DNA from: a virus
Reading direction: 5' to 3' (one strand)
Length of the DNA stretch: 64,000 nt
Virus record (IMG/VR): IMGVR_UViG_3300009155_000050
Coordinates: 1 to 64,000 of that record
A model generated the notes under the pieces. That model ran no database searches, was not told where the DNA came from, and was given only the letters and a program-made list of their open reading frames with translations. Positions 5,754-19,914 of the stretch are shown here, piece after piece. Position numbers and translations under genes: made by a program. Position 1 is the first letter of the stretch. Each line of letters starts with the position of its first letter.

Positions 5754-5813
5754 GGTTACATCAAATTGTGACAGCCCAAACGACATGGGAGAATATATTT
5801 ATATCTCCTCGCC
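5754..5813 (-). repeat. Early-arm spacer unit
   Basis: The best-preserved core, CTGTCACAATTTGATGTAAC, runs straight into AAAGGAG of the next gene. The upstream hairpin is an A/T variant (GGAGA ... TCTCC around TATAAATATA). Confidence 0.8.
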
Positions 5814-6074
5814 TTCAAACCATTTCCTAACGAAAGTAAGATTGGGTTTAAAAGACTCATGCCAAATCCGTGGCACTTTAAAAATCGTGCCACTCTTCAA
5901 CGACGGAAAATAATGAGCCACCTCACCACCAACTCCATCAAAATAATAAACACACTGTATCGCTTTATCTATATCACTACGAAACACATCCTCACATTCA
6001 AACAAACCCTCAAAATCATCTTGCGAAACATTCGACATTGTTTCAACACACTTACCAGCAGTATCAGATGACAT
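5799..6074 (-). CDS. Acidic hypothetical protein, 91 aa
   Basis: ATG 6074 follows AAAGGGG. The product begins MSSDTAGKCVETMSNVSQ and is acidic in the first half (DDFEGLFECEDVFRSDID). The second half (HYFPSLKSGTIFKVPRIWHESF) could be a small beta domain. The family is unknown; it is the second gene of a pair with 6095-6301. Confidence 0.7.
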   Translation of the reverse strand: MSSDTAGKCVETMSNVSQDDFEGLFECEDVFRSDIDKAIQCVYYFDGVGGEVAHYFPSLKSGTIFKVPRIWHESFKPNLTFVRKWFEGEEI

Positions 6075-6094
6075 ATTAACCCCTTTCTAAGTGT

Positions 6095-6301
6095 TTACAT
6101 CCACCCAAACATGTTAGACATATCAGCCAAATCATACTTCTCTATCTCACGCTCCACCGCCTCCGCTGGCGTGAAGCTATCAGAAAAATAATTTTCAACA
6201 ACCCCATCAGCACCACCATCCTCAATGGTAATACCGACGCGACGCAAGTATTCAGCAGCAAACTGCTTACGCCACACCGACAACGATTGCTTCTTTATCA
6301 T
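6095..6301 (-). CDS. Small hypothetical protein, 68 aa
   Basis: ATG 6301 is preceded by GGAGGTGAGCG. The N-terminus is basic and helical (MIKKQSLSVWRKQFAAEYLRR) and the rest acidic, ending MSNMFGWM. No family is recognised. It is separated by 20 nt from the gene at 5799-6074, which it precedes in the same transcript. Confidence 0.7.
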   Translation of the reverse strand: MIKKQSLSVWRKQFAAEYLRRVGITIEDGGADGVVENYFSDSFTPAEAVEREIEKYDLADMSNMFGWM

Positions 6302-6320
6302 CGCTCACCTCCAAAAAAGG

Positions 6321-6367
6321 ACACGATATTGTGGCACAACCAGAAGAGGATGAAAATCCCCCCCCCA
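6321..6367 (-). repeat. Early-arm spacer unit
   Basis: GTGCCACAATATCGTGTCC preceded by a long G-run (GGGGGGGGGATTTTC). The C-rich arm is missing, as at 1451. The G-run abuts the stop of the upstream gene. Confidence 0.65.
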
Positions 6368-6547
6368 CTATCCATTCTCCAATGCCCGACGCATATAATC
6401 CCTAGCAGCATCAATATCTAGACAAGGCAAGCCTTCAAGCTCGCAATCACTATCCAGATAAACCCCACTTGGATCATTCCAGGCAAGCCAACTGATAATC
6501 GCAGTGCGATCCCCACTATTGAGGATCGCTGACCAATCTTGCCACAT
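6368..6547 (-). CDS. Small hypothetical protein, 59 aa
   Basis: ATG 6547 lies 7 nt after AAGGAG; the ATG at 6553 is too close. It begins MWQDWSAILNSGDRTAII and ends RRALENG. It is acidic with three tryptophans. It is 5 nt downstream of the paralogue at 6559, so the two are co-transcribed. Confidence 0.65.
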   Translation of the reverse strand: MWQDWSAILNSGDRTAIISWLAWNDPSGVYLDSDCELEGLPCLDIDAARDYMRRALENG

Positions 6548-6558
6548 CACCATACTCC

Positions 6559-6765
6559 TTATAGAAACGAACCCTCGTCCTCGTACCCGTCGAACCGCGG
6601 GCCACGTTTCTCAGTTAATGTCACAGCCCATGAGGATGTGGCAGTTTTAGAGGACGTTTCTGGGTTACGGCAGTGAGCCTGAGCCTCCTCAAGGCTCAAA
6701 CCACGCTCTACCACCCCCCCCCTACAGGCATTCTGATATCTTCGAACTATCATGTAAGTTGTCAT
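6559..6765 (-). CDS. Small LSLEEAQxHC-family protein, 68 aa (copy 2)
   Basis: ATG 6765 follows AAGGAG at 6 nt. It carries LSLEEAQAHCRNPETSSKTA and FDGYEDE, matching the protein at 2288-2488 over most of its length. The two copies sit in different neighbourhoods but behind the same type of spacer unit, which fits duplication or cassette exchange. Function is unknown. Confidence 0.8.
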   Translation of the reverse strand: MTTYMIVRRYQNACRGGVVERGLSLEEAQAHCRNPETSSKTATSSWAVTLTEKRGPRFDGYEDEGSFL

Positions 6766-6785
6766 TTCTCACTCCTTGTTATTAC

Positions 6786-6830
6786 CACCACACAAAATTG
6801 TGACAGGGTTGAGAGAGGAGAGAAATCCCT
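6786..6830 (-). repeat. Early-arm spacer unit
   Basis: GGGATTTCTCTCCTCTC followed by CTGTCACAATTTTGTGTGG. The downstream TGTGTGGTGGTAA resembles that of the unit at 2244, which precedes a different gene. Confidence 0.75.
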
Positions 6831-6831
6831 A

Positions 6832-7086
6832 CTACGCACCACTACCAATCTCAACCAAATGATTAAATACCTGATTCTCAACAAATAAGGCAACCATACC
6901 ACCACCCACATTCCCCAACACAGCACCACTTGGTGGAGTAGTATCAGGCTTGGCGCCAACTTGATAAGACCAAAAGCCATCGTGCCCTTCCAAAACCCAC
7001 ACGGAAGCCAACGCCTCTTTCAACTTGGCATTCATGCCAGCAATTCCAGAAACACGATCAGTAACCTTCACCGCATTAACAGCCAT
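6832..7086 (-). CDS. Hypothetical protein, 84 aa
   Basis: ATG 7086 is preceded by GGAGGGTGTGCG. The product begins MAVNAVKVTDRVSGIAGM and is rich in Gly and Val (GAVLGNVGGGMVALFV). It has no transmembrane-length hydrophobic run and no recognised family. Its valine and glycine richness partly reflects the GT-rich coding strand of this block. Confidence 0.7.
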   Translation of the reverse strand: MAVNAVKVTDRVSGIAGMNAKLKEALASVWVLEGHDGFWSYQVGAKPDTTPPSGAVLGNVGGGMVALFVENQVFNHLVEIGSGA

Positions 7087-7100
7087 CGCACACCCTCCAA

Positions 7101-7304
7101 TTAATTAATTCTAATAACTCCAGTATTCATCCCAGTCTTAAACCGAATCAAAGGATTCCTGGGATGGGTCGGATTTGAATACCACCCGCGCCCGTGATAT
7201 AACATCACCATATCATCATTTGGAAATTTAAACAACGCACCAACATCAAGGTGCTTGATAATGCTGTTACAATCCAACTGATTAGCCCAAACAGCAGCTT
7301 CCAT
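7101..7304 (-). CDS. Small hypothetical protein, 67 aa
   Basis: ATG 7304 follows AAGGAGG at 7 nt. The product begins MEAAVWANQLDCNSIIKH, and the middle is aromatic (VMLYHGRGWYSNPTHPRNP). The stop is 14 nt before the next start. No family is recognised. Confidence 0.7.
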   Translation of the reverse strand: MEAAVWANQLDCNSIIKHLDVGALFKFPNDDMVMLYHGRGWYSNPTHPRNPLIRFKTGMNTGVIRIN

Positions 7305-7340
7305 CGTTGCGCCTCCTTATTATTATCAAACTGACAATTC

Positions 7341-7382
7341 GATGTGACAATAAAGGGGTGGGAGAGAAATCCCCCCACCCCA
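7341..7382 (-). repeat. Early-arm spacer unit
   Basis: GGGGTGGGGGGATTTCTC/CCACCCC hairpin followed by TTGTCACATCGAATTGTCAG. The core's ACAATT is displaced, appearing again as GAATTGTC. Confidence 0.7.
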
Positions 7383-7395
7383 TCAAGGGACGACC

Positions 7396-8037
7396 TTAAA
7401 CCTTCAAATATCGGACCAAAGCACTGCCGATTAATTCAACGAATCGGGAGATAGCACCCCTATCATGACCACAAATCTCAGTCAAATTATCAAGCTTCTT
7501 ATAAGCCACCTTCTGCTCGACATCCAACAACGAAATCTCAGGATCGATAGAGGCCACCTGCTCAACCAAGGCCTCAAGGGCCTTGCTAACAGCCTTCTCA
7601 ATCTGTGGGTTCATCAACGCCACACGATTGAAGCTGAACGTGGTCTCCTCGTACAAGAGACGATCAACCGCATCCGACCCAATCTCAACTACGAGCTGCT
7701 CACGAAGATCATCAGAGACCTTCACCTGGCCGCTGCGATCCTGCACCACATAGGTCAAGCTCTCTCCCTCAGGAGTCAACAGCTTCATCGGAGATTCTGG
7801 AGATCCAGATTCACGGACATAATCAGAAAGCCATTTTTCCTGAGCAACACCCTTAAGAATGTTCTTCCGAACATTAATCTTGGCATTGATAGCATCAACC
7901 TCACGGTCGAGCTTCACGATCTCGTTGACCGCGTCAATATGAGCTGCCTCAGTTAGCATCCAACTGGTGCCCTTCTTTGCACCAGTCTTAGTAGCCTTGT
8001 TAACCGACTTGGACTTTAGATTATTCAAGAAACTCAT
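7396..8037 (-). CDS. Hypothetical protein with basic N-terminus, 213 aa
   Basis: ATG 8037 follows GGGAGG at 6 nt. Residues 1-30 are basic (MSFLNNLKSKSVNKATK). Residues 35-75 form a likely coiled helix (HIDAVNEIVKLDREVDAINAKINVRKN), and the C-terminal half is helical. The size and early position suggest a nucleic-acid-associated early protein, but no motif proves it. It is one of the larger genes in this arm and stands alone behind its own spacer. Confidence 0.75.
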   Translation of the reverse strand: MSFLNNLKSKSVNKATKTGAKKGTSWMLTEAAHIDAVNEIVKLDREVDAINAKINVRKNILKGVAQEKWLSDYVRESGSPESPMKLLTPEGESLTYVVQDRSGQVKVSDDLREQLVVEIGSDAVDRLLYEETTFSFNRVALMNPQIEKAVSKALEALVEQVASIDPEISLLDVEQKVAYKKLDNLTEICGHDRGAISRFVELIGSALVRYLKV

Positions 8038-8090
8038 CGCAACCTCCCGCTTTCGCATTTGGTGAGGAAAAACCGTTCTCCCTCACCAAC

Positions 8091-8128
8091 CAATTGTGAC
8101 AGAAATCAGATGAGCAAGAAATCCCCTA
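8091..8128 (-). repeat. Early-arm spacer unit
   Basis: GGGGATTTCTTGCTC then CTGTCACAATTGGTTGGTG. A second stem, GGTGAGG/CCTCACC (8061-8087), lies between the core and the downstream gene. Confidence 0.7.
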
Positions 8129-8344
8129 TCACCCTGCAGAATTACAATATTCATCGACAGCAGCAGGACCATGCTCGGTCTTCAAATAAGATCGCAAAGC
8201 ACGCGTCATTACAGCAGTAAGAGTACGCTCCTCACGCCTAGCAGCCTCACGAATCAAAGCAGCCACAGACGGCTCAACCCGCAGTAAAATAGATTCACGA
8301 TTATCACGTGCACCTACGCCACCAACCTTAGCTCTACCCATCAT
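8129..8344 (-). CDS. Putative ribbon-helix-helix regulator, 71 aa
   Basis: The start at 8344 (or ATG 8341) follows GGAGGTG. After a Gly-rich lead, residues 18-60 read ESILLRVEPSVAALIREAA, then RREERTLTAVMTRALRSYL. This is the beta-strand plus two-helix pattern of ribbon-helix-helix DNA-binding proteins. Such proteins usually bind operators as dimers. Its start overlaps the end of the upstream gene, so they are coupled. It is the best candidate for a dedicated transcription regulator in the left arm. Confidence 0.7.
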   Translation of the reverse strand: MMGRAKVGGVGARDNRESILLRVEPSVAALIREAARREERTLTAVMTRALRSYLKTEHGPAAVDEYCNSAG

Positions 8345-8592
8345 ACACCTCCAATGTTAGAATTCCTAATACATTCAACAACCACACTCAAAGCATCAGC
8401 CAATTCAACCGCTTCAACTGTGAACCCGAATTCGCACTGCCCATTTGTAAAACCCATACCATCGAACTCTACATCATCCCGAGCAATACATTTATCATAG
8501 ATCCTATTGTTAATAACATTCAAACTAGTAGTAGGATCCATCACATTATCAACATCCACCTCAACACCAATAGTCAACTTAAAACTAGGCAT
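8341..8592 (-). CDS. Hypothetical protein, 83 aa
   Basis: ATG 8592 overlaps the stop of the upstream gene by one base and has AAGGAG ahead. The product is MPSFKLTIGVEVDVDN..., acidic, with alternating hydrophobic residues suggesting a beta-rich fold. Middle of a three-gene coupled set (9083, 8592, 8344). No family is recognised. Confidence 0.75.
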   Translation of the reverse strand: MPSFKLTIGVEVDVDNVMDPTTSLNVINNRIYDKCIARDDVEFDGMGFTNGQCEFGFTVEAVELADALSVVVECIRNSNIGGV

Positions 8593-9083
8593 TACGCACT
8601 CCTTGAAAATTTACAAGGGCAATCGGCAGCTTCAATATCCACACCAATAATTTTAGTATGCTTCCCCACCTTGGACAGTACACTATGATAAGTGTACAAT
8701 CCAGCACCCGATTTCTTTCTTTTAACCACATTAGCAAAACCACATTGATGTAAATCCTCTGCCAACCCCTTTCCAGAGAGCCTATCAATAGGGATAACCT
8801 GCTTCATCCCAATGCCCAAAGCGAACATACTCCACCACGTCAACAGCAATCCAAAAGCACTCTGATCATCCAAATCGCGCATTGCCTTCAGACATGCAAA
8901 CCGCCCATCATCCAGCAAATCAGTCTTAATTTCCACAATCGTCAAATTAGGTGCTTCCTCATGTATCTTCCTAATACGAGGAGGCGCAGCAGCAGTTAAC
9001 TCCATCGACGGCTTAGGCAATTCGAGTCGAAAATACGGCTCCTTGCACGCTTTAAAATCTTCCCAAATCTTAGTAAACGCCAT
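8592..9083 (-). CDS. Hypothetical protein, 163 aa
   Basis: ATG 9083 follows AGGAGGGG. It begins MAFTKIWEDFKACKEPYF and has a hydrophobic helix in the centre (FGLLLTWWSMFALGIG) that is probably buried. A basic segment follows (NVVKRKKSGAGLYTY), reminiscent of a winged-helix wing. The protein ends in CPCKFSRSA. No firm family; a nucleic-acid-binding role is only a guess. Confidence 0.7.
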   Translation of the reverse strand: MAFTKIWEDFKACKEPYFRLELPKPSMELTAAAPPRIRKIHEEAPNLTIVEIKTDLLDDGRFACLKAMRDLDDQSAFGLLLTWWSMFALGIGMKQVIPIDRLSGKGLAEDLHQCGFANVVKRKKSGAGLYTYHSVLSKVGKHTKIIGVDIEAADCPCKFSRSA

Positions 9084-9113
9084 AACACACCCCTCCTAAC
9101 ACGTGAACCACCG

Positions 9114-9158
9114 ACCACATGTGACAAAGAAAGTGCGAGAGGGCAATCCCCCTCGCAC
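9114..9158 (-). repeat. Early-arm spacer unit
   Basis: A stronger hairpin than most, GTGCGAG/CTCGCAC extending to an 11-bp stem with one mismatch around CAAT, followed by TTGTCACATGTGG. Confidence 0.75.
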
Positions 9159-9173
9159 CTAAACCAATAAATA

Positions 9174-10298
9174 TTATGCACTAAGGTGTAATTCCTTGAA
9201 GCCATTGCTATCCAAAGTCATCTTAGCACCCTCAAGATCATACTCGTTACTAATCAAACTACCAACCCACCCATGCAAACGCCGAGCAGCAGTAGTATCA
9301 GAATGGTGAGTAGCTACCTCAGTAGCAAAATTGATCAAGTCATACACACTACACTTAGCTGGCAACGTCTTCAATTTCTTAGTATTAACCATGCTAGTGG
9401 ACGCTAAACCATACAAGCTCGACACATCACCAGCCAGATTAACCAAAGATCTCGACACGCTAAACCGATTGCTCATCCCGTATTCCTGCTGCACCATCGA
9501 ACCAGCGGTATCCTCTGGTGCAACACTAGAAATATTCTCCTTAACACGGCTGATAGCGTTATAAAGATCAGTCACCTCAAACAACGACGCTCTAGAAGTC
9601 TGCGACGACGAAATCCGCTGCCTGATCGCAGAATAACCCTCATCATTACCATAACCTTGCAAATGGCGAGCAATGCTATAAGAAACATTGCCATCCTTCT
9701 TACCAACCGAAATCCGACTCTGGAAAGCCTTATCCATAGCAACCAACCCATTCGAACACACCTGACGCAGCAAGCTCAAATACAAACTAGGCAACCCATA
9801 ACCATCGATAGGTGCTGAAAGCGTAACATGTGGTGTAAACTGATCACCACCAATCGACACATCACCAGCACCAACCGCAGGTTTGTGACACGACTCAACC
9901 ACACCATTGGCATAACGAACCTTGTCACCACCCAAGGTGCTAGTCAAATCCATCAACTCATCATAAGTGATCAGACCAGAATTGGGATTTGTACAAGCAA
10001 GCAACTTATCAACCCCATTATCGCTCTCCACACACACCCGAATCTCCCTATCATCATCACGCTCCTGGAGACGCGTGAACACTTCATCATGGCTGAAGTA
10101 CTTGAAAAACGCACCATTGAACCCGTACATGCTATACAAGCTATTCCAAAACCTAGAGGTCGGATGGGCAGCCTGACCATCAATCTCAATCTTGTCGCAA
10201 GTCTTGCGTAACAACCGACCGGTTTTCGTCCGCTGCTCATCAACGTGAGCTCGCAAAGACTTAACATTGGTGGTCACGTAATTAAAAGTCGTCATCAT
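9174..10298 (-). CDS. DUF932-like protein, about 374 aa
   Basis: Four ATGs in a row (10304-10295) follow GAGGAG; the third has the best spacing. Residues about 140-200 contain PHVTLSAPIDGYGLPSLYL followed by LLRQVCSNGLVAM. This matches the DUF932/TIGR03299 phage-plasmid family, where a ligand-like core ends in a VCxNGL motif. The role of the family is not established; members are common in phages and plasmids near replication genes. The C-terminal third is helical. The gene lies directly upstream of the helicase stop on the other side, within the same strand block. Confidence 0.75.
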   Translation of the reverse strand: MMTTFNYVTTNVKSLRAHVDEQRTKTGRLLRKTCDKIEIDGQAAHPTSRFWNSLYSMYGFNGAFFKYFSHDEVFTRLQERDDDREIRVCVESDNGVDKLLACTNPNSGLITYDELMDLTSTLGGDKVRYANGVVESCHKPAVGAGDVSIGGDQFTPHVTLSAPIDGYGLPSLYLSLLRQVCSNGLVAMDKAFQSRISVGKKDGNVSYSIARHLQGYGNDEGYSAIRQRISSSQTSRASLFEVTDLYNAISRVKENISSVAPEDTAGSMVQQEYGMSNRFSVSRSLVNLAGDVSSLYGLASTSMVNTKKLKTLPAKCSVYDLINFATEVATHHSDTTAARRLHGWVGSLISNEYDLEGAKMTLDSNGFKELHLSA

Positions 10299-10335
10299 CA
10301 TCATCTCCTCTTGTTAAAAATCACCAAAACCACAA

Positions 10336-10370
10336 TACTATATGACAATATCGAAACACAAAAGATATTA
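10336..10370 (-). promoter_or_regulatory. Spacer core without hairpin; possible promoter
   Basis: TTGTCATATAGTATTGTGG is a diverged core. Just upstream on the minus strand is CCTATAATATC, a good match to a TATAAT -10 box, but no convincing -35 is visible. This is the only left-arm spacer with no G/C-run hairpin at all. Confidence 0.4.
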
Positions 10371-10381
10371 TAGGATAATAC

Positions 10382-11530
10382 TTAATCCAAAGGAGCTCCA
10401 AAGATCCGAGACTTCTTACGCTTATTCTTGGTAATAAACTGAGGCATCTCAGTAATAGCGCTAGCGCAAGCAACACGACTCATAATCGATATCTGCTCCA
10501 TCTTAGGATTAATAGTCAAACTCGACCACTTACCATCCTTAAACAAAGTCTGATAGCGAGGCTTAGCAACCCTAGTGAATGGCACACGTGTGGCAACACT
10601 CTGCACAATCTGCTTAACAGGCAAATTACCAAACTTCCGAAGCACCCGACCACCCATCTGCACAGTTGGACCCTTCACACTATCACGCACCCATACAGTT
10701 CTAAGAGCAGGGCAATCAAAACCCTCCGTAAGCTTCATACAATTAATCAAAACATCAATCTCACCAGACTCAAACCGAGCTATCTGCGCCTCATCATCAC
10801 TATTAGCAGTGACAACCTCAGACTCAACACCGTTAGCCTGCAAAATCGCATGGAATTCCTGGCACAAATTCGTGTTAACGAAATAAAATAAACTCTTGCC
10901 CCACTTACTACGATCAGCCAAGTAATGACGAGCTACCGTCTCAGGCTTCCAATCCTCTATACAATAATGATCATACTGACTCAAAAAACCCTCAGTAATC
11001 AACGTATGAATCCCAGCATCCTTCACAATCGCCTGATAGCTCAAACTAGCGCTATCAGTACGGTAAGGTGTAGCAGTACCACCAAGTACAAAATCAGGCT
11101 GTATCACATTGTGAATATTAGCCATAGTATTACAACTATCATGCTGATATTCATCCAACACCACAAGGATCTTACGACCCTCAGCCTTAGCTCTCAAAAC
11201 ATCTTCGAATTCTTTCCCAAACATAGAAAAGAACTGAATGTCAACTCCAACACCACGACGCGTATTCTCCTCAGCTGCCTGCCGCAACAAATTGCGACGC
11301 ATAGCAAACCAACAAACATACAAGCCGGGAATACTCTTCTGCATTTCTCTAGCGGTAAGAAGCATCATACAAGTCTTACCAGACCCAGTAGGACTCTCAA
11401 TCACAACGCTATTATAAACCTGCTTCTGGTCATTCTTGACATATTCACCCTTGAACATGTCTGTCACTTTCTTTATAATCCTCTGCTGATAAGGTCGCAA
11501 CTCAAAGCCAGTGCCAGCTGCAAAGTTCAT
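10382..11530 (-). CDS. SF2 DEAD/DEAH-type helicase, 382 aa
   Basis: ATG 11530 has GGAG at 7 nt. The motifs are clear: SPTGSGKT at 46-53 (Walker A), DEYQHD at 126-131 (motif II), GTATP at 151-155 (motif III), NCMKLTEGFDCP about 263-274 (motif V) and QMGGRVLR at 291-298 (motif VI). The layout matches small phage SF2 enzymes such as T4 UvsW-type or RadD-like helicases that remodel branched DNA. Motif III is GTAT rather than SAT. It is the only clear replication or recombination enzyme in the left arm. Confidence 0.9.
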   Translation of the reverse strand: MNFAAGTGFELRPYQQRIIKKVTDMFKGEYVKNDQKQVYNSVVIESPTGSGKTCMMLLTAREMQKSIPGLYVCWFAMRRNLLRQAAEENTRRGVGVDIQFFSMFGKEFEDVLRAKAEGRKILVVLDEYQHDSCNTMANIHNVIQPDFVLGGTATPYRTDSASLSYQAIVKDAGIHTLITEGFLSQYDHYCIEDWKPETVARHYLADRSKWGKSLFYFVNTNLCQEFHAILQANGVESEVVTANSDDEAQIARFESGEIDVLINCMKLTEGFDCPALRTVWVRDSVKGPTVQMGGRVLRKFGNLPVKQIVQSVATRVPFTRVAKPRYQTLFKDGKWSSLTINPKMEQISIMSRVACASAITEMPQFITKNKRKKSRIFGAPLD

Positions 11531-11555
11531 TTCATCACTCCAAGTACTGGTGAAT

Positions 11556-11568: not shown

Positions 11569-11682
11569 GTGACAGACCACGAACATAGGAAAAATAACCC
11601 TCCAATACAACACACATAATTATTAAACAATATCAAACCTGCTACAATTAGCCAGTCACAACATCACAAACGGAGCATCACA

Positions 11683-13910: not shown

Positions 13911-14138
13911 ATGGCCAACAAAATCACCATCAAACTAAACGAAACCCAAACCACACAACTCCTAGATATCCTAAAGGACACTTATGAAACCAACAACACC
14001 CTACCAACAAACCCAAAAACCATCCTAAAAATCAAAGAAGCCATAGAAAACAGCCTAGAATGGCACCGAAGATTCGTAAAAGGATCACCCTTATACAACA
14101 TGAAACGACCCACATGGACCAGAACAACTTCGAGATAA
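13911..14138 (+). CDS. Hypothetical protein, 75 aa
   Basis: ATG 13911; an upstream extension would cross the 40-bp repeat and is rejected. The product begins MANKITIKLNETQTTQLL. Its N-terminal beta strand followed by helices (LLDILKDTYETN ... KIKEAIENSLEW) would fit a small DNA-binding fold, but this is not diagnostic. The ribosome site is weak. The extreme AC content of the coding strand drives its Thr/Asn/Lys richness. Confidence 0.6.
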   Translation: MANKITIKLNETQTTQLLDILKDTYETNNTLPTNPKTILKIKEAIENSLEWHRRFVKGSPLYNMKRPTWTRTTSR

Positions 14139-14174
14139 TAGCCAAACAGGGAAACTAGACTGGAGTCCAAAGAA

Positions 14175-14414
14175 ATGCAGACTTTCAAGGATAAATGGGA
14201 TACTACACTCTGCACAGATCGTGTTGAAGCATATGCCGAAATCATCATAATCGAACCCTGTGAACGCCGATTTACCATGTATTTTTCTGCACAAGAAGCT
14301 AGGAAGATTGGTAGAGCATTGGTCGAGTTAGCGAATGAGATTGAGCCTCCAATGGATTGCGGCGAGTCTTCCTTTAAGGTTTTACCGCCAGCAGCGTACC
14401 CCCAAACCCCGTAA
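14175..14414 (+). CDS. Hypothetical protein, 79 aa
   Basis: ATG 14175 with GGAG about 9 nt ahead. The product begins MQTFKDKWDTTLCTDRVE and contains an aromatic strand pair and a helix (SAQEARKIGRALVELANEIE), then a proline-rich tail. Base composition is balanced, unlike the AC-rich sequence on either side, so the gene may be a recent arrival. Confidence 0.7.
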   Translation: MQTFKDKWDTTLCTDRVEAYAEIIIIEPCERRFTMYFSAQEARKIGRALVELANEIEPPMDCGESSFKVLPPAAYPQTP

Positions 14415-14427
14415 GCAATAACCCTGC

Positions 14428-14444
14428 GTTCCACCTAGGAAACA
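14428..14444 (+). repeat. GTTCCAC/AGGAAACA 17-mer, copy 4
   Basis: GTTCCACCTAGGAAACA, 14 nt after the stop of the gene ending at 14414, in a short AC-rich strip between two balanced-composition genes. Confidence 0.65.
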
Positions 14445-14455
14445 CTTACCAAACC

Positions 14456-14536
14456 ATGGACGAACTAGAAGAACGACGACCAAAACTGAAAGGACCCCAA
14501 CAATGCTCATCTTCTGCTACAGCGCAATACTCATAG
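14456..14536 (+). CDS. Possible 26-residue peptide
   Basis: ATG 14456 to TAG 14536 encodes MDELEERRPKLKGPQQC and a Ser/Ala-rich tail. The AC-rich strip and the acidic-basic start look gene-like. There is no ribosome site, and a second ORF overlaps its 3' end, so it may be the truncated front of a gene. Confidence 0.25.
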   Translation: MDELEERRPKLKGPQQCSSSATAQYS

Positions 14537-14565
14537 CCCTCATCAGAACTGGGGTGATGGCATGA
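14503..14565 (+). CDS. Possible 20-residue hydrophobic leader peptide
   Basis: ATG 14503 lies 8 nt after AAGGA and encodes MLIFCYSAILIALIRTGVMA. Its TGA overlaps the ATG of the next gene (ATGA at 14562), so it could couple translation of that gene. It would span a membrane once. Its small size makes it uncertain. Confidence 0.35.
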   Translation: MLIFCYSAILIALIRTGVMA

Positions 14566-14837
14566 ACAGACACCAATTGGCCACACTACTTTCTTGGACC
14601 GGGGAACAAGGATTTTCTGGGCGCAAGCGCCTGCAAAAAGTCGTTTTCTTCCTTCAGCAAGCAGGTTGTGATTTAGGGTGCCACTACATGCTCCATCGCT
14701 TCGGACCGTATTCACAAGACGTCGCCGATGCCTGCGACGAGATGGTGGCCGCTGGATTGGTCATTGAAACTGGCGGTCCGCAAAGCACGACGAAGCAATA
14801 CTCATATACGCTAAAGCCGGAAATACGAGGTGAATGA
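14562..14837 (+). CDS. YwgA/SocA-like helical protein, 91 aa
   Basis: ATG 14562, coupled to the short peptide before it. The pattern GRKRLQKVVFFLQQAGC, then HYMLHRFGPYSQDVADACDE and GLVIE, matches the YwgA/Panacea-type fold, whose members include regulators and phage-exclusion antitoxins. The key KLQKxxFF and GPYS elements are present. In phages such proteins are sometimes antitoxins or anti-defence factors. The role here is not shown by context; the next gene overlaps by ATGA. Confidence 0.65.
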   Translation: MNRHQLATLLSWTGEQGFSGRKRLQKVVFFLQQAGCDLGCHYMLHRFGPYSQDVADACDEMVAAGLVIETGGPQSTTKQYSYTLKPEIRGE

Positions 14838-15247
14838 TGAATGAACCAGTATTGTGTTTTATTAAAGACAACACAGCGTATTTTACTACGCAAGAATTGA
14901 GTAAGCAGACAGGTGACGACTGGAATGATGCTCCGTATGAGCATAATGCTGGGAGACCCTACAGCCCTTTTCGTTCTATTCCGGAAGATTGGAATGAAGA
15001 TGGAACACCTAAATGGGAGATAAGTCAAGTCATATTTAAAACTGACTTGGTAACCCCAGAGGAATATCATTACGGTAATTCATCATACTGTGTTGAAGAT
15101 ATCAACGCTAAGTATGTACCATGGTTGGCAACGGCAAAGTATTCTAGTGATCCCAAAGTAGTCATTCACGCTGGTGTAACCATCACGGAATTCAAGAGGT
15201 TGATCCGTAGTGCTGGTGGTAAAATCTATGTGGAGGAAAAGGAATGA
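14834..15247 (+). CDS. Conserved phage hypothetical protein, 137 aa
   Basis: The start at 14834 (or ATG 14837) overlaps the previous stop. It contains TGDDWNDAPYEHNAGRPY followed by DWNEDGTPKWEI and VEDINAKYVPWLA. I recognise this motif set from many uncharacterised phage proteins of similar length. It is acidic and aromatic. It is coupled to the next gene, whose ATG overlaps its stop, giving a three-gene operon with balanced base composition. Confidence 0.8.
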   Translation: MMNEPVLCFIKDNTAYFTTQELSKQTGDDWNDAPYEHNAGRPYSPFRSIPEDWNEDGTPKWEISQVIFKTDLVTPEEYHYGNSSYCVEDINAKYVPWLATAKYSSDPKVVIHAGVTITEFKRLIRSAGGKIYVEEKE

Positions 15248-15459
15248 GCATGAGTAAAAAAATGGATCTTAATATTGTTCCATGCATACGTGCTCATAAG
15301 CATTTGTTTAATGCGCACAAAATATGTCAGTGGTGTAATGTGCCAAAAGACGAAATCGAATTAAAGGCATCTAGGCTACGAATAAAGCAATTGGAAGAAG
15401 CCATTGCCAAACATAAAAAATTCGTTAAGGAGATGATCTATATAATTTTCAGTACATGA
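15244..15459 (+). CDS. Small protein with Cys pair and basic coiled tail, 71 aa
   Basis: ATG 15244 overlaps the previous stop (ATGA). The N-terminal half has C14 and HKICQWC (28-31), possibly a zinc site with nearby histidines. The rest is a basic helix (RLRIKQLEEAIAKHKKF). Function is unknown; third gene of the 14562 operon. Confidence 0.65.
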   Translation: MSMSKKMDLNIVPCIRAHKHLFNAHKICQWCNVPKDEIELKASRLRIKQLEEAIAKHKKFVKEMIYIIFST

Positions 15460-15463
15460 GGAC

Positions 15464-15609
15464 ATGGTAAATGCAATTGAAGATTTAGCTGAAGTGTATA
15501 AAGTCCACAAGCAGACCCTGAACCGTTCGACACCAACCCAATCACCCACGAACTGATCAAAATCGACATATCCACAGAACAAACAACCCGACAAGCCATA
15601 GATAAATAG
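15464..15609 (+). pseudogene. Probable broken gene
   Basis: ATG 15464 opens a 30-residue frame (MVNAIEDLAEVYKVHKQ). At about 15505 the composition switches to AC-rich, and a different frame carries protein-like text to a TAG at 15607-15609 (PFDTNPITHELIKIDIS). The join looks like the boundary where an inserted block meets the tail of an older gene. Confidence 0.35.
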
Positions 15610-15621
15610 AACACTATTCCA

Positions 15622-15652
15622 GTCAAATCTATTATAGAATGATAGATTTGAC
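15622..15652. terminator. 11-bp hairpin
   Basis: GTCAAATCTAT/ATAGATTTGAC with a 9-nt loop, between the convergent plus block and the minus gene ending at 15661. The A/T-rich stem and lack of a U-tract make it a weak terminator or a transcript-end stabiliser. Confidence 0.45.
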
Positions 15653-15660
15653 CAAACAAA

Positions 15661-15783
15661 TTAATTAAAATCACTTATACTAACACATGTACCACTCGCC
15701 AGCACTCTCATCTCAGCCAAATCAGAAGGACCATTCGGATCTTCACTAATCAACTTTGCGATATATCTAGGATCAACTGCCAT
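15661..15783 (-). CDS. Small hypothetical protein, 40 aa
   Basis: ATG 15783 follows AAGGAG at 7 nt, and the frame ends at TAA 15661. It encodes MAVDPRYIAKLISEDPNG and ends SISDFN. It is acidic with one helix. A spacer core (CTGTCACA) lies just upstream, exactly as for the other left-arm minus genes. No family is recognised. Confidence 0.7.
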   Translation of the reverse strand: MAVDPRYIAKLISEDPNGPSDLAEMRVLASGTCVSISDFN

Positions 15784-15813
15784 AACCAAACTCCTTAAAA
15801 ATTAAGCAGTAAC

Positions 15814-15826
15814 TTTACTATGTGAC
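15814..15826 (-). repeat. Spacer core upstream of the 40-aa gene
   Basis: ATGCTGTCACATAG, then AAGTTACTG on the minus strand. This is the rightmost copy of the core; none is seen beyond the composition switch at about 16.6 kb. Confidence 0.6.
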
Positions 15827-15865
15827 AGCATAAATCCGCAATCGGTAAATATACCATCCAACCTA

Positions 15866-15905
15866 ACCAAACCAAACCAAACCAAACCAAACCAAACCAA
15901 ACCAA
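15866..15905. repeat. Tandem pentanucleotide (ACCAA)x8
   Basis: Eight perfect copies of ACCAA (TTGGT on the other strand), with a diverged unit on the left. It lies in the gene-poor repeat segment near the composition switch. An open frame through it on the minus strand is produced by the repeat and is not a gene. Confidence 0.95.
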
Positions 15906-15927
15906 CTTCACATCAGTTACGACCTCC

Positions 15928-15944
15928 GTTCCACAAAGGAAACA
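15928..15944 (+). repeat. GTTCCAC/AGGAAACA 17-mer, copy 5
   Basis: GTTCCACAAAGGAAACA in the non-coding segment, 23 bp after the ACCAA array. It has no gene ending directly upstream. Confidence 0.6.
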
Positions 15945-16074
15945 CAGAGACAAGAGCAAACCAAATGCTGGCTGGAAAAACACCACGGCAAACCCGGCCC
16001 CGCATAACCACATAAATAAAATAACCACTGGGGTAGGGAGGGATGTTTTCACCATTTCCTGTCATCCCATAAAC

Positions 16075-16114
16075 AACTGCCGAAGGCGAATGGTGTCAAG
16101 CAGAAGTTCCCCAG
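16075..16114 (+). repeat. 40-bp exact repeat, copy 2
   Basis: Identical to 13848-13887. It ends 12 nt before ATG 16127. On the minus strand both copies contain TTGACA and a GCC-TTC-GGC mini-hairpin. On the plus strand both lie in the leader of a small gene. Confidence 0.9.
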
Positions 16115-16126
16115 TGGCCCAATAAA

Positions 16127-16321
16127 ATGCGATATACAATCAACCCAAACACCGACATCAACAGCCCCTTCTGGATAGAAGACCCAAACGGCGACTGGAC
16201 CCGCGACCAAATAGGCAATAGATACATCTACCGACACCGCCCCCAGATTAGCCTACTCCCCTCGGCACCGAATGAAACACACCAAAACGTAAAACAGAAT
16301 CAACCACACTGTCATCACTAG
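16127..16321 (+). CDS. Possible hypothetical protein, 64 aa
   Basis: ATG 16127, directly after the 40-bp repeat, encodes MRYTINPNTDINSPFWIE, then GDWTRDQIGNRYIYRHRP. No Shine-Dalgarno is evident. Beyond its stop another frame stays open and protein-like to about 16431 (SISHSAHEIELEWNF), so a frameshift may have split a longer gene. AC-rich sequence yields few stops, which weakens both readings. Confidence 0.4.
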   Translation: MRYTINPNTDINSPFWIEDPNGDWTRDQIGNRYIYRHRPQISLLPSAPNETHQNVKQNQPHCHH

Positions 16322-16559
16322 AAAAATCAATCTCACATAGCGCACACGAAATTGAACTCGAATGGAACTTCACCCAATCAAAAAACAAAACAATCAACAC
16401 ATGTGACGCATCATCTGAATAATCGACCCGACACAGCGGATCAATTAAAGAGACACATACCATCCTAGGTAGGGGGCTATAGACGCCATGGATGTGAAAA
16501 GTAAGATGAGCCACCCGACTCTCCAGGAGTGACCTGAGGTACTCCCCGACGAAAATTAA

Positions 16560-16760
16560 ACTACTCATCGGAACTATCGACGATTAAAAATAAGATACCT
16601 GTCATGTATTTTCGCAGCCTCCAAAGGGATGGATTATTATTCTATACGACGGGGTTTATAGAATATTATCGGGCTGCACTTATAAGAGTCGAATGTTCTG
16701 AGAATTAACGGGCTATAAACGAACATTTTTGTGTTATTCTTTTTCCTCACTTCATTTTCT
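16560..16760. other. Candidate replication origin (strand-composition inflection)
   Basis: Left of this point the plus strand is markedly A/C-rich whichever way genes point; to the right it is G/T-rich although genes are on the minus strand. Minus genes at 6-11 kb have GT-rich coding strands, while minus genes at 17-19.5 kb have AC-rich ones. Coding bias therefore cannot explain the switch. Bidirectional replication starting here would. The switch falls in the one repeat-rich, gene-poor stretch of the arm. Confidence 0.55.
16639..16664. repeat. Inverted repeat in the switch region
   Basis: ATTCTATA/TATAGAAT with a 10-nt loop (CGACGGGGTT). A/T-rich arms with a G-rich loop in the putative origin. 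Confidence 0.5.
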
Positions 16761-16846
16761 TCTGATTTCACCGAGGCGATGAGATGGCCACTGAGTTCCT
16801 TCTCCCGTTCCCGCTAACTTTTTTAATTTTTCCTTTTTTTCTCGCA

Positions 16847-17125
16847 TTACCATCCTATGTAGCTGGTGCAGTCTCTTGGTGGTAGTATGTTGGCTTCCGG
16901 GTCTTTGGGTTTTGTTTCTATCATATCTGCGTATTTGGTGAGGAGTGCTGAGATTTTTCTGATGTTTTGGGCTGAATCTGTTACCCATATTCCTTCGGGA
17001 TTTGCGATTGCTACGGTTTTTTCGTCAAATGCGATTTCGAGTATGTCTTGCCGGTTGTCTAGGTAGTATGTTTTTATGATTGGGGTTTTTTGGTCTTTTT
17101 TGGTGTCTTGGTTTTTTATGTTCAT
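16847..17125 (-). CDS. Hypothetical protein, 92 aa
   Basis: ATG 17125 follows AAAGGA. The product begins MNIKNQDTKKDQKTPIIK and has a small alpha/beta pattern (YYLDNRQDILEIAFDEKTVA ... GIWVTDSAQNIRKI), ending PPRDCTSYIGW. No family is recognised. It is the last gene of the minus transcript that runs into the composition-switch region. Confidence 0.7.
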   Translation of the reverse strand: MNIKNQDTKKDQKTPIIKTYYLDNRQDILEIAFDEKTVAIANPEGIWVTDSAQNIRKISALLTKYADMIETKPKDPEANILPPRDCTSYIGW

Positions 17126-17202
17126 TTTTAGTTCCTTTGCTTAGTTTAGCTTATTGTATTAGAGGTCGTATTGTAGTCTTTCGATTTCTTTTTCGTGGTC
17201 TG

Positions 17203-17334
17203 TTATTGTGTCGTTGCTTGTAGCTTTTCTATAAGTTGGTATGCTTCTTGGTGGCATGTGGGGCAGTTTTTGCAGCTTATGCCTTGTTTGATTTGGTATT
17301 CTGCGCAGTCTGTTTTTTTCTTTGTTGTGGTCAT
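17203..17334 (-). CDS. Small cysteine-rich protein, 43 aa
   Basis: ATG 17334 follows AAGGAA at 6 nt. The peptide begins MTTTKKKTDCAEYQIKQG and has CxxxxxxxxxxxC, then NCPTCH, five candidate zinc ligands in 25 residues. A small zinc-finger peptide is likely. A shorter frame nested in its 3' half (ATG 17257 to TAA 17159) is also protein-like but has no ribosome site. Confidence 0.6.
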   Translation of the reverse strand: MTTTKKKTDCAEYQIKQGISCKNCPTCHQEAYQLIEKLQATTQ

Positions 17335-17419
17335 ATGTCTTCCTTTTTGGTGGTCGGGTGGGTTAGTTGTTTGATTATTTATGATGAGGTGAGTTGGTAG
17401 TGCTATGTTTTTATTGTGT

Positions 17420-17515
17420 TTATTTGGTTTTCCTTTTGTTTATTGTATCTGGTTGGTTGTGGTCGTTCTTTCCGTTGATTGTTGGGGATCCTTTGTGGTG
17501 GTTGGTTTTGTCCAT
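17420..17515 (-). CDS. Doubtful 31-residue peptide
   Basis: ATG 17515 to TAA 17420 encodes a very polar Asn/Lys/His peptide (MDKTNHHKGSPTINGKND). It has no ribosome site, and the AC-rich strand makes short open frames common. It is listed because it fills an otherwise empty gap between 17334 and 17523. Confidence 0.2.
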   Translation of the reverse strand: MDKTNHHKGSPTINGKNDHNQPDTINKRKTK

Positions 17516-17522
17516 TTTTTTG

Positions 17523-17870
17523 TTATTTGGTACCTTTGTGTTTTTGTTGTGACAGGTATGAGCTTCGTTGATAAGTGTGGAATTTGTGGGTGAGTGCTGT
17601 TCTGATGTCGATTGAGCTGAAAACAGCAGGCCGATGGTTGAAGATAGCTAGATTTTTAATTAGACTGGGTAAAACCGTGTGATCTGTCGTGATGTCTATT
17701 TTTGATAGTTCTATGAAGCCTATGGGGATGTTTGAATTGGATTTAAGCGTTAGTGATACATATTCGAATTGATCTAAATCATCGATGTGATATTCATGGG
17801 TATATTCTGGATGTAGGATTTCGTGTAGTATTGGTGCTAGATAGGTATCGTATATCTCTTTAGTGGTCAT
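17523..17870 (-). CDS. Hypothetical protein, 115 aa
   Basis: ATG 17870 has AAAGG about 10 nt upstream. The product begins MTTKEIYDTYLAPILHEI. It has a helical start, an alternating central region (FEYVSLTLKSNSNIPIGFI) and a basic His-rich C-terminus. No motif is recognised. The start overlaps a tiny Cys-rich frame that ends just before it. Confidence 0.65.
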   Translation of the reverse strand: MTTKEIYDTYLAPILHEILHPEYTHEYHIDDLDQFEYVSLTLKSNSNIPIGFIELSKIDITTDHTVLPSLIKNLAIFNHRPAVFSSIDIRTALTHKFHTYQRSSYLSQQKHKGTK

Positions 17871-17871
17871 T

Positions 17872-17937
17872 TTAACATTGCCTTTGCATGGTACCTTTGA
17901 TCATTCCGCATTTTTTGCAGCATATCATAGCCACCAT
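17872..17937 (-). CDS. Possible 21-residue Cys-rich peptide
   Basis: ATG 17937 (or 17928) to TAA 17872 encodes a peptide with CCKKCG and a final Cys, a possible zinc-knuckle fragment. It ends 2 nt before the next ATG. No clear ribosome site; it may be a gene remnant. Confidence 0.25.
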   Translation of the reverse strand: MVAMICCKKCGMIKGTMQRQC

Positions 17938-17970
17938 TCGTGTTTGTCTAGCTTAATCTCAGTCATCTGC

Positions 17971-18093
17971 TTACCACATAAGGCTAAGATATGCCAGTTT
18001 CCAGAGATTGATGATTATAATCAATGCAATCGGTGCTGTAATGGTCATTGAAATCAGAATTTTAGCGATTTCATCACTATTGGGTTTAGTCAT
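17971..18093 (-). CDS. Small membrane protein, 40 aa
   Basis: ATG 18093 follows AGGAG at 7 nt. The peptide has a polar start (MTKPNSDEIAK), then a single hydrophobic span (TITAPIALIIIINLW). One membrane-spanning helix is expected, with the short N-terminus on one side. Its base composition is balanced, unlike its AC-coding neighbours. Phage peptides of this kind can act in lysis or superinfection control, but nothing here decides which. Confidence 0.7.
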   Translation of the reverse strand: MTKPNSDEIAKILISMTITAPIALIIIINLWKLAYLSLMW

Positions 18094-18103
18094 TCTTATG
18101 CTC

Positions 18104-18340
18104 CTAGGTTGTGTGGTTATTTATCGGGTGGTCTATGAGTTGTTGTATCATTTGTTCTGTTTGTTGGTGGTTTTCTATTGGCAGTTGGTTGCCGTTGATC
18201 TTTTGTGTGTGGGTTGGTGTTTTAATGGTTAGGGTGAAGTGGGATTTTGTGGTGTGTTGTGTGAAGTAGTAGACGTATGGTTTGGTTCCTCTGTATTGTT
18301 GGAGGATTTGGGTGATGTAGTTTATTGTTGGTGTGTGCAT
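18104..18340 (-). CDS. Hypothetical protein, 78 aa
   Basis: ATG 18340 begins 2 nt after the stop of the HExxH/VWA gene. The frame is also open far upstream as the off-frame shadow of that gene, so only this 3' part is real. The product begins MHTPTINYITQILQQYRG and is rich in Thr, Gln, His and Asn. Translation is probably coupled to the upstream gene, as no separate ribosome site is visible. Family unknown. Confidence 0.65.
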   Translation of the reverse strand: MHTPTINYITQILQQYRGTKPYVYYFTQHTTKSHFTLTIKTPTHTQKINGNQLPIENHQQTEQMIQQLIDHPINNHTT

Positions 18341-18342
18341 TG

Positions 18343-19548
18343 TTAGTTGATGTGGATGTTGTGTCCCCATGTTGGTCCTTTTTGGTTTGTGGTGATGATG
18401 ACTATTGATGGGTATGGTTTGGGTGGGGCCCAGTTGGTGTGTCCGTCTGTTAGGAGTATTTGTAGGTCTGCGATGAGGTTGTTGTTTTCGAGCCATTCGT
18501 ATGGTGTTGCCATGTCGGTTCCTCCTCTGCCGTTGATGTTTATTTTTTTCCAGTCTCCTCTTCGGTATTGGGTGTAGCCCTGGTATTGCATGTCCCATTG
18601 TAGGATGTGTGTTTTGGTTTTGCTTGATATTGTGTCGATTTCGGCGAAGAATGTGGCTAGGTCTTTTTGGTTTATGCTTCCGCTTGTGTCGATGATGATG
18701 TTGACTGTGGCGGCTGCGTGGTGGCTTGTGCCTTTGATGCCGAATTGGTCGGTTCGTCTGTTGCGGCGGCTGTGGGTGTATCGTTTGTTGCCTAGGTGTT
18801 GGCCTATGTAGCGGCGTAGGAGTTCGCGCCATCGTATTTTTGGTGTGGATAGTTCTTTTATTGCTTCTGTGAGGTGGCTTGGGTATTTGCCTTGGTTTCT
18901 GGTGATAGCTTGGTTTGTCATTTCTTTGATTATTTGTCTGGCTTCGTCTTCGCTTATGTCGCTTTGTTGCCAGATGTCGTGGTTGTCTAGTGTTTGGCCT
19001 TGGGTGCATGTGCATTTTGGGTGTTGGTCTTTGTTTTTGCCGTGTTTTTTGCAGTCTTGTGCTTGGTTGGTGAGTCGTTTGTAGTATTCTTCTGCGCTTG
19101 CGTCTTCTGGCCATCCTAGGGGGATCCATACGAGTTTGTCTTCGTGTGGGAGGGTTCGTCCGCCATATTCTCCTGATCCTAGGCTGGTTGTTGGGTAGCC
19201 GACTCGTGGGTTTCTTTTTACGCCGTTTACTGTCATGTCGGCGGCGATATTGTATTGCATTTGATGTAGGGTGGATCCTCTGAGGCAGTGGAGTCGTATG
19301 ACGTGTTCGATTTCGTGCATTATGACTCCGTAGCATTCTTCTATGGTTAGGTTGTCTATGAAATTGGGATAGTATACGATGTCGATGTTGCCGGTGGACA
19401 TCATGCGTACTGCTATGGTTTTAGCTTCCTCTTGCATGTTGGGGAAGTCGTATGGTTGGTATGTGAGTCCCATGGCGAATGAGCCGTAGAAGGGTTCTCT
19501 GGTGATGAGGCGGCATCGGGCGTTCATCAATTTTTCGTGTGCTTGCAT
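18343..19548 (-). CDS. HExxH metallopeptidase-like / VWA protein (DUF2201 type), 401 aa
   Basis: ATG 19548 follows AAAGGAG. It has two domains. The N-terminal domain has HEIEH at residues 78-82, the zinc-binding HExxH motif of the DUF2201_N family. The C-terminal VWA-like domain has DTSGS at 287-291 and later GGTD and LLTDGH, the metal-ion-dependent adhesion site. Proteins of this build pair with MoxR AAA+ ATPases, and one lies at 20015. The pair is thought to act as a metal-dependent chaperone or protein-remodelling system. A CxC/H cluster (CTCTQ, 179-183) sits between the domains. Confidence 0.85.
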   Translation of the reverse strand: MQAHEKLMNARCRLITREPFYGSFAMGLTYQPYDFPNMQEEAKTIAVRMMSTGNIDIVYYPNFIDNLTIEECYGVIMHEIEHVIRLHCLRGSTLHQMQYNIAADMTVNGVKRNPRVGYPTTSLGSGEYGGRTLPHEDKLVWIPLGWPEDASAEEYYKRLTNQAQDCKKHGKNKDQHPKCTCTQGQTLDNHDIWQQSDISEDEARQIIKEMTNQAITRNQGKYPSHLTEAIKELSTPKIRWRELLRRYIGQHLGNKRYTHSRRNRRTDQFGIKGTSHHAAATVNIIIDTSGSINQKDLATFFAEIDTISSKTKTHILQWDMQYQGYTQYRRGDWKKININGRGGTDMATPYEWLENNNLIADLQILLTDGHTNWAPPKPYPSIVIITTNQKGPTWGHNIHIN

Positions 19549-19566
19549 GTTGTGCTCCTTTGTTTA

Positions 19567-19914
19567 TTACCATGTGAGGGCGGTAATGCTTGCGTTAGCG
19601 TTAATGTGGGTTGGGGTGCCGTTTCCTTGGATTTCAAGGGTTTTTATGCATCCTGTGGTGAGGAGGATGAGTAGGATACTTGTGTTTTTTACAAAGGTAA
19701 GTAGCGTTGCGATACCGGGGATTATGGTGTCGCTTACTACGTCTTTTTGGCCGCTTTTGAGTGTTGCTTGTAGCCATTCCATTGCCATCCAGGCTGCGTT
19801 GAGTTCTTGGATGGCTAGGTAGGTGCTCATCGTTTTATCGATGTGGTCTATGTAGTTTACCGTGATGATTGTAGCGCAGGTGACTGCTCTAGCTATGAAT
19901 ATTGTCTCTTTCAT
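19567..19914 (-). CDS. Membrane protein, 115 aa
   Basis: ATG 19914 lies about 9 nt after AAGGA and overlaps the stop of the 23-aa gene (ATGA). A first hydrophobic stretch (IFIARAVTCATIITVNYI) and a second (IATLLTFVKNTSILLILLTT) suggest two membrane helices with a soluble loop containing AWMAMEWLQATLKSG. It lies between the MoxR and VWA genes on the same strand and could anchor that system, but this is only inferred from position. Confidence 0.7.
   Translation of the reverse strand: MKETIFIARAVTCATIITVNYIDHIDKTMSTYLAIQELNAAWMAMEWLQATLKSGQKDVVSDTIIPGIATLLTFVKNTSILLILLTTGCIKTLEIQGNGTPTHINANASITALTW

What the first reader, a model, noticed from the sequence alone, without database searches (positions are those of the whole stretch)
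5800..19600. Extreme strand-composition switch at about 16.6 kb, a candidate replication origin
From about 6 kb to 16.5 kb the plus strand is strongly A/C-rich irrespective of gene direction; from 16.75 to 19.6 kb it is G/T-rich. Minus-strand genes on the two sides therefore have opposite coding biases, which excludes a coding or transcription explanation. The turning point falls in the only repeat-rich, gene-poor stretch (ACCAA array, 40-bp repeat, hairpins).
Basis: seen in the sequence. Interest (0 to 1): 0.75.

Follow-up and report, generated by a model that had tools for sequence, protein, structure and literature searches.

The report
Probable phage origin with extreme skew
The strand-composition switch is real, recurs in four other large phages, ignores gene direction and very likely marks a place where this uncultured phage starts copying its DNA in both directions, with an unusually strong mutational footprint close to the start site.

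Summary
The A/C-to-G/T switch of the plus strand lies at 16,725 (interval 16,624-16,857). It is the largest in the 99.9-kb record (0.63; next 0.12). Skew ignores gene strand: a helicase/DUF932-like pair on opposite strands in two phages shows the same genomic bias. A gene 2.3 kb from the switch has fourfold sites 99% A/C on its coding strand; its orthologue 66 kb from a switch does not.

Four other phages (G003, G021, G022, G024) carry the same switch; twelve other records do not. Bias fades within 5-20 kb. T4 oriA and oriF show no such jump. This phage, G021, G022, G024 and G008 also have a weaker switch at a conserved noncoding element (weak match here; about -8 kb, outside the window); G003 has the element at its record end. 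TTTCC-N5-GGAAA-type palindromes concentrate between the two sites in all five.

Best reading: a bidirectional replication origin, one of two, with strand-specific mutation consistent with long single-strand exposure. Origin likely; single-strand mechanism inferred; divergent antisense transcription not excluded. Nothing here is experimental.

The parts
16624..16857 (.). Turning point of the strand skew (best estimate 16,725): proposed bidirectional origin, ori1
   Evidence: Likelihood change point and interval, log-likelihood gain 238; cumulative keto minimum falls at 16,599
1..16623 (.). A/C-rich arm of the plus strand (leftward replichore of ori1 in the proposed model); in the overlapping contig G001 it continues to about 3.1 kb left of the window
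   Evidence: fourfold sites in plus- and minus-strand genes
16858..24000 (.). G/T-rich arm of the plus strand, strongest at 16.9-20 kb and fading to about zero by 24 kb (rightward replichore)
18343..19548 (-). DUF2201 metallopeptidase/VWA gene: fourfold sites A 0.53, C 0.46, G 0.00, T 0.01 on the coding strand (n=159)
   Evidence: Pfam PF13203 and PF09967
10382..11617 (-). ResIII/DEAD-type helicase; homologue in G003 is on the opposite strand with the same genomic bias
   Evidence: 48-49% identity
9174..10304 (-). DUF932-like protein (E 0.0017, below Pfam cut-off), same natural experiment as the helicase
13054..13836 (+). ATP-dependent DNA ligase-like gene (weak, just under the Pfam cut-off), plus strand, A/C-rich fourfold sites (keto -0.53)
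14175..15459 (+). Block of small genes without keto skew inside the A/C arm, between the two 40-nt repeats: probably a recent insertion
   Evidence: repeat coordinates; insertion is inference
15860..15905 (+). AACCA tandem array; the surrounding ~165 bp are tandemly duplicated in the overlapping contig G001
13848..13887 (+). Copy 1 of a 40-nt exact direct repeat
16075..16114 (+). Copy 2 of the 40-nt repeat; forms the 3' hairpin of a sub-threshold CyVA-1 RNA match at 16,030-16,112
   Evidence: 24.7 bits, gathering 41.4
12534..12555 (.). One of 6 TTCC-N5-GGAA palindromes of this record (others start at 652, 4587, 13557, 14429, 15929); none lies right of the turning point

Best explanation
The switch is a bidirectional DNA replication origin (ori1) of a large tailed phage. 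Two forks leave about 16.72 kb. On each side the strand that is copied discontinuously, minus to the left and plus to the right, spends more time single-stranded near the origin and loses C and A (C to T, A to G), so it becomes G/T-rich whichever strand the genes use. Because the bias is near saturation within 2-5 kb and falls away within 5-20 kb, I infer that lagging-strand synthesis starts late, or that initiation is often repeated or abortive, close to the origin. A second, weaker origin (ori2) lies about 25 kb to the left, outside the window. Shown here: position, recurrence, independence from gene strand, decay, second site. Inferred: that the cause is replication, and that it is single-strand damage.
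For: Jump 0.63 against 0.12 for the next in the record and 0.39 for the best of 5000 block permutations. Origin-type switches (AC to GT) also in G003 (0.62), G021 (0.46), G022 (0.94) and G024 (0.46); the strongest opposite jump in any of these is 0.34. Fourfold sites within 5 kb left of the G003 switch: keto -0.72 in plus genes, -0.69 in minus genes. Helicase and DUF932-like homologues on opposite strands in two phages: genome-strand bias -0.64/-0.43 and -0.68/-0.33, coding-strand bias of opposite sign. Orthologues far from a switch are weakly biased: VWA +0.97 at +2.3 kb against +0.21 at +66.5 kb; ligase -0.53 and -0.86 near, -0.15 at +43.7 kb. Bias decays with distance on both sides. A second switch with a convergence point between. 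G/T enrichment of the strand left single-stranded is the vertebrate mtDNA pattern (PMC3269012, passages read).
Against: Cumulative GC skew of the record has its minimum at 88 kb, not here. No conserved sequence was found at ori1 in all five phages; the 40-nt element shared by G021, G022 and G024 at the switch is dispersed, with 7 further sites at 24 bits or more in six records (two best per record listed) and no skew there. No excess of DnaA-box-like sites: TTWTNCACA 2 found, 6.75 expected, neither near the switch. No consistent hairpin at the turning points. The left arm of the G021 switch is uneven between gene strands within 5 kb (-0.69 against -0.14). Two of 13 orthologue families do not follow distance to the main switch. 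T4 and T7 show no jump above 0.08, so an origin need not leave this mark. The two assemblies of this phage differ at too few sites (23) to give a mutation spectrum.
Confidence: 0.78

Rival explanations
1. Two strong divergent, largely antisense transcripts start at 16.7 kb; the non-template strands are exposed and lose C and A; termination explains the decay with distance. Replication need not start there.
For: The strand polarity would be the same as for an origin. In G021, G022 and G024 a conserved leader-like element (AAAGGAGAAG type, minus strand) faces left exactly at the switch. T4 origins form R-loops that prime synthesis (PMC3016281, start of abstract in the listing).
Against: The nearest genes on both sides of the window's switch point towards it, not away, and sense transcription does not change the bias: plus and minus genes beside the G003 switch are equal. 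Only 3 sigma-70-like sites in 15.5-18 kb, fewer than in shuffles (6.1). The leader element elsewhere carries no skew.
Confidence: 0.12
2. Inversion or acquisition: the right arm is a piece of the A/C-rich region flipped by recombination, or the skewed region came from an element with one-sided replication.
For: The region has repeats and an apparent recent insertion (14.2-15.5 kb); the bulk of the genome lacks keto skew.
Against: The same type of switch in 5 phages, always AC to GT, with bias peaking at the junction and decaying both ways; an inversion would give two opposite sharp junctions, and the largest opposite jump is 0.34 against 0.46-0.94.
Confidence: 0.05
3. Coding or codon-usage bias of small accessory genes.
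For: Small genes without named relatives are frequent there.
Against: Homologous genes on opposite strands keep the genomic, not the coding, bias; fourfold sites of plus and minus genes agree in G003.
Confidence: 0.02

Closest known systems
Skew-marked bidirectional replication of huge phages (Al-Shayeb et al. 2020, PMC7162821; passages and a figure legend read)
   Different: The passages seen describe genome-wide origin-to-terminus skew. Here the bias is local (5-20 kb), near saturation at fourfold sites, in AT as much as GC, and there are two sites.
Vertebrate mitochondrial strand-displacement replication (PMC3269012, passages read)
   Same: The strand left single-stranded becomes G/T-rich; effect graded with exposure.
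   Different: Here both directions from one site, in a phage whose relatives measure 147-408 kb; no replication intermediates known.
T4 origins oriA and oriF (NC_000866 annotation)
   Same: Several defined origins in one phage genome.
   Different: No skew jump there (at most 0.08 in the two 50-kb stretches); these phages encode a family-A-type DNA polymerase and a DnaB-type helicase, with no family-B hit.

Membership tests
Bidirectional replication origin recognised by strand skew | Sharp sign change of skew, G/T on the leading side | tested here: met
Bidirectional replication origin recognised by strand skew | Bias independent of gene direction | tested here: met
   (G021 arm uneven; two of 13 gene families do not fit)
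Bidirectional replication origin recognised by strand skew | Extreme of the whole-genome cumulative skew | tested here: inconclusive
   Keto yes, GC no, in an incomplete record
Bidirectional replication origin recognised by strand skew | Physical initiation (read depth, intermediates) | not testable with these tools
   No reads or cultures at hand
DnaA/oriC-type origin | Cluster of DnaA boxes at the switch (box consensus recalled) | tested here: not met
   2 found, 6.75 expected, none near 16.7 kb; relaxed scan 52 against 70.3 expected
T4-type origin | T4 origins leave comparable skew | tested here: not met
   Jump at most 0.08 in stretches with oriA and oriF
T4-type origin | R-loop primer at a promoter | not testable with these tools
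   Needs transcript data
Mitochondrial-type strand displacement | C and A both depleted on the exposed strand, graded with distance | tested here: met
Mitochondrial-type strand displacement | Delayed second-strand origin (stem-loop) on the displaced strand | tested here: inconclusive
   Palindromes between the two switches have 5-bp arms; no function shown
CyVA-1 RNA (RF02965) | Score above Rfam gathering threshold | tested here: not met
   24.7 bits against 41.4

The most novel reading that the evidence does not exclude
A clade of uncultured large phages starts replication from two conserved sites 11-32 kb apart. From the main site both forks leave long-lived single-stranded arms, a two-way relative of mitochondrial strand displacement, and the interval between the sites is a special accessory zone marked by TTTCC-N5-GGAAA-type palindromes (binding sites of a dimeric phage protein, or priming sites on the displaced strand).
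Probability: 0.35. Interest if true: 0.8.

Novelty: new variant of a known kind. Interest (0 to 1): 0.63.

Why it matters
Origins of uncultured large phages are rarely mapped (recall). This signal places one to about 230 bp from sequence alone, gives a second one with a conserved element, and recurs in five phages, so initiation and lagging-strand timing could be tested in metagenomic read depth without a culture. Fourfold sites that are 99% A/C in a gene 2.3 kb away are, to my knowledge (recall, no survey made), an exceptionally strong strand asymmetry.

Tried and rejected
Conserved ori1 sequence: blastn between switch regions found a 27-nt match between G021 and G022, extended in G024, but a position-weight scan showed it dispersed in several genomes without skew: rejected as origin-specific, kept as leader/promoter-like.

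Cruciform or hairpin at the turning point: not supported. DnaA boxes: not supported. RNA structure in the ori2 element: RNAalifold gave 6 weak pairs, folding term -1.85 and a positive covariation term, not supported. Rfam at gathering threshold found only one tRNA in window plus L003 and two tRNAs in seven further loci; the CyVA-1 match stays sub-threshold.

Mutation spectrum from the two assemblies of the same phage: 23 differences, indels included, too few. A collection scan for one exact palindrome form returned 33 stretches; of these only those of G003 and G022 had more than one TTTCC-N5-GGAAA and a jump above 0.3, so the 21-nt form alone is not specific. The last scan, for an exact ori2 pattern, found only G024 itself. 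Whether the palindromes are intergenic was not settled: 34 of 55 lie inside a crude ORF set that covers 77-89% of the intervals. A literature search for CyVA-1 gave one paper, one passage read. No paper describing this local double-switch pattern was seen in seven searches of the library; I looked at listings and the passages named, so this is not proof of absence.

Selection of records: of the 67 TerL loci I searched the records of 20 (G001 reached through L005) and took DNA from 13 of those 20 (G001-G009, G012, G015, G017, G019); G010, G011, G013, G014, G016, G018 and G020 were not read for skew. G021, G022, G023 and G024 came from the helicase/DUF932 searches. The last 391 bases of G009, 5,177 of G017, 7,598 of G002, 5,776 of G006 and 6,091 of G023 were not fetched. 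L233 and L234 were not examined for skew.
Full report
What the record is. The window is bases 1-64,000 of a 99,898-bp virus record with no long repeat shared between its ends. It is a tailed phage: major head protein and portal, and a long ORF at L003:12,620-14,596 that I read as the large terminase subunit from its sequence (recall; it found 67 related loci). A 115,614-bp contig, G001 (IMGVR_UViG_3300027963_000048), is 99.97% identical over 93 kb and extends 22.5 kb left of the window. TerL relatives reach 231-275 kb, so the record is probably a fragment. A near-identity search of 8,000-19,600 in 50,697 phage records found nothing. Distant homologues of the helicase lie in a Planctomycetota MAG and in Blastopirellula marina, a weak hint at the host.

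The observation. Plus-strand GC skew is negative and AT skew mostly positive from base 1 to about 16.6 kb and reversed from 16.75 to about 20 kb, fading by 24 kb. The change point is 16,725 with interval 16,624-16,857. The 3-kb jump in keto content is 0.63, next best 0.12; 5000 block permutations gave at most 0.39. The cumulative keto minimum of the record is here; the cumulative GC minimum is at 88 kb. The AACCA array and the 40-nt repeats lie to the left of the turning point.

Recurrence. I computed the same statistic in 18 IMG/VR records (17 phages, since G000 and G001 are one). Strong AC-to-GT switches occur in six of the 18 records, five phages: G000/G001 0.63, G003 0.62 at 32.5 kb, G021 0.46 at 192.1 kb, G022 0.94 at 197.6 kb, G024 0.46 at 143.8 kb. 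The other twelve records reach at most 0.36 (G007), then 0.32 (G006) and 0.27 (G005). G003 came from the TerL search, the others from helicase/DUF932 searches. Among records with a near full-length helicase relative (E 7e-115 or better: G001, G003, G021, G022, G024) 5 of 5 have the switch; a record with a partial one (G019) and one found only by the DUF932 relative (G023) do not. In T4 (two 50-kb stretches that hold the annotated oriA and oriF), T7 and the first 50 kb of phiKZ the largest jump is 0.10.

Not coding bias. At fourfold-degenerate sites within 5 kb left of the G003 switch the plus strand has keto -0.72 in plus genes and -0.69 in minus genes. The helicase and DUF932-like gene lie 5-7 kb left of the switch in both G000/G001 and G003 but on opposite strands; their plus-strand fourfold bias has the same sign (-0.64 and -0.43; -0.68 and -0.33) and their coding-strand bias the opposite sign. 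Orthologues lose the bias away from a switch: VWA gene +0.97 at +2.3 kb in G001 and +0.21 at +66.5 kb in G022; ligase -0.53 and -0.86 close, -0.15 at +43.7 kb. Against this, two of 13 families in that table (the 179-aa/147-aa and 319-aa/341-aa families, 16-41 kb from the main switch) do not follow distance to the main switch, and near the G021 switch minus genes are less biased than plus genes (-0.14 against -0.69).

Decay. Raw keto in the first kilobase is -0.29 to -0.50 on the left and +0.30 to +0.63 on the right of the five switches and mostly about 0.2 or less beyond 4 kb, with longer left arms in G000/G001 and G003. A weak same-direction bias persists in far parts of G021 and G022 in both gene strands. 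A constant leading/lagging bias would not decay this fast, hence the inference of an origin-proximal process.

A second site. In G021, G022 and G024 a weaker switch lies 11-29 kb left of the main one and holds a conserved noncoding element (CGGAAAATA..., GAGAGCAACC..., CTACCAATACTTAG). A sequence-only model of these three found G008, not used in building, at E 2.4e-12. A model of the four, searched over 2.59 Mb in 131 sources, found the held-out G003 at its record start (E 7.7e-5) and, weakly, two places in G001 (E 0.1 and 0.22), plus one weak hit in G022 (L205, E 0.085) away from the two switches; none in the window. The element coincides with the largest up-jump outside the main switch in G021, G022 and G024, with the largest of all in G008, and with the second largest (0.44 against 0.45) in G001. 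In G001 it lies about 8 kb left of the window; cumulative keto peaks between the two sites at about -3.1 kb, as expected for converging forks. For G003 the element is 61-144 bases from the record end, so its left side is unseen.

Palindromes between the sites. TTTCC-N5-GGAAA is enriched only at spacing 5 and lies between the two sites in 12 of 12 (G003), 16 of 17 (G021), 7 of 12 (G022) and 10 of 10 (G024) cases; the variant TTCC-N5-GGAA in 10 of 10 in G001, one of which sits in a 165-bp tandem duplication. Binomial P is 2e-7 to 7e-14; control spacings show no such concentration. The motif was noticed at switch points before this test, so P values are descriptive. Half-sites one helical turn apart suggest a dimeric DNA-binding protein (inference).

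Replication genes. A DNA polymerase A family match and a DnaB_C match occur in 5 of 8 records searched, DNA polymerase B in 0 of 8; the window's own record, G001 and G002 lack both, being incomplete.

Mechanism. G/T enrichment needs loss of C and A on that strand, as described for the vertebrate mitochondrial heavy strand, which is left single-stranded (PMC3269012, passages). The fork geometry exposes the G/T-rich strand on each side of the switch. I therefore propose a bidirectional origin with delayed or repeated initiation. Shown: position, recurrence, gene-strand independence, decay, second site. Inferred: replication as cause, single-strand damage as process. Divergent antisense transcription remains the main rival.

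Novelty. Skew-marked bidirectional replication is reported for about 30% of huge phages (PMC7162821, passages). The local, near-saturated, two-site form with a conserved element and an inter-site palindrome family was not seen in seven literature searches (listings and named passages only). I file it as a new variant of a known kind.

Noticed in passing
G003 1-32,492; G021 163,240-192,250; G022 183,270-197,584; G024 132,870-144,076; window 652-15,941: A family of TTTCC-N5-GGAAA (in this phage TTCC-N5-GGAA) palindromes with variable 5-nt centres is concentrated between the two skew switches.
   Followed up: partly
L194:3186-3295, L207:3228-3332, L242:12814-12922, L111:8232-8352(-), L085:61-144, L084:1243-1308(-): Conserved noncoding element at a second origin-type switch in several of these phages.
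   Followed up: yes
window 16030-16112 and 13850-13876: Sub-threshold CyVA-1 RNA match (24.7 bits, E 0.035 in 5 kb) whose 3' hairpin is the 40-nt exact repeat; the second copy lies 2.2 kb away.
   Followed up: partly
window 14175-15459: Small genes without the surrounding skew, between the two 40-nt repeats; looks like a recently gained cassette.
   Followed up: partly
G021 192,212 and 129,868; G022 197,522 and 357,166; G024 144,067 and 104,834; G023, G008, G012: Dispersed leader-like element (minus strand AAGGGAAGCYAAAGGAGAAGCTCGGAG) often just before an ATG; possibly a phage promoter or translation leader.
   Followed up: partly
window 15825-15990: About 165 bp with the AACCA array is present twice in tandem in the overlapping contig G001.
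   Followed up: no
window 904-986: tRNA-Leu (TAA) gene on the minus strand.
   Followed up: no
L004 16,870-16,898: The record ends inside a short tandem repeat (CACTGG units), the likely reason why the assembly stopped.
   Followed up: no
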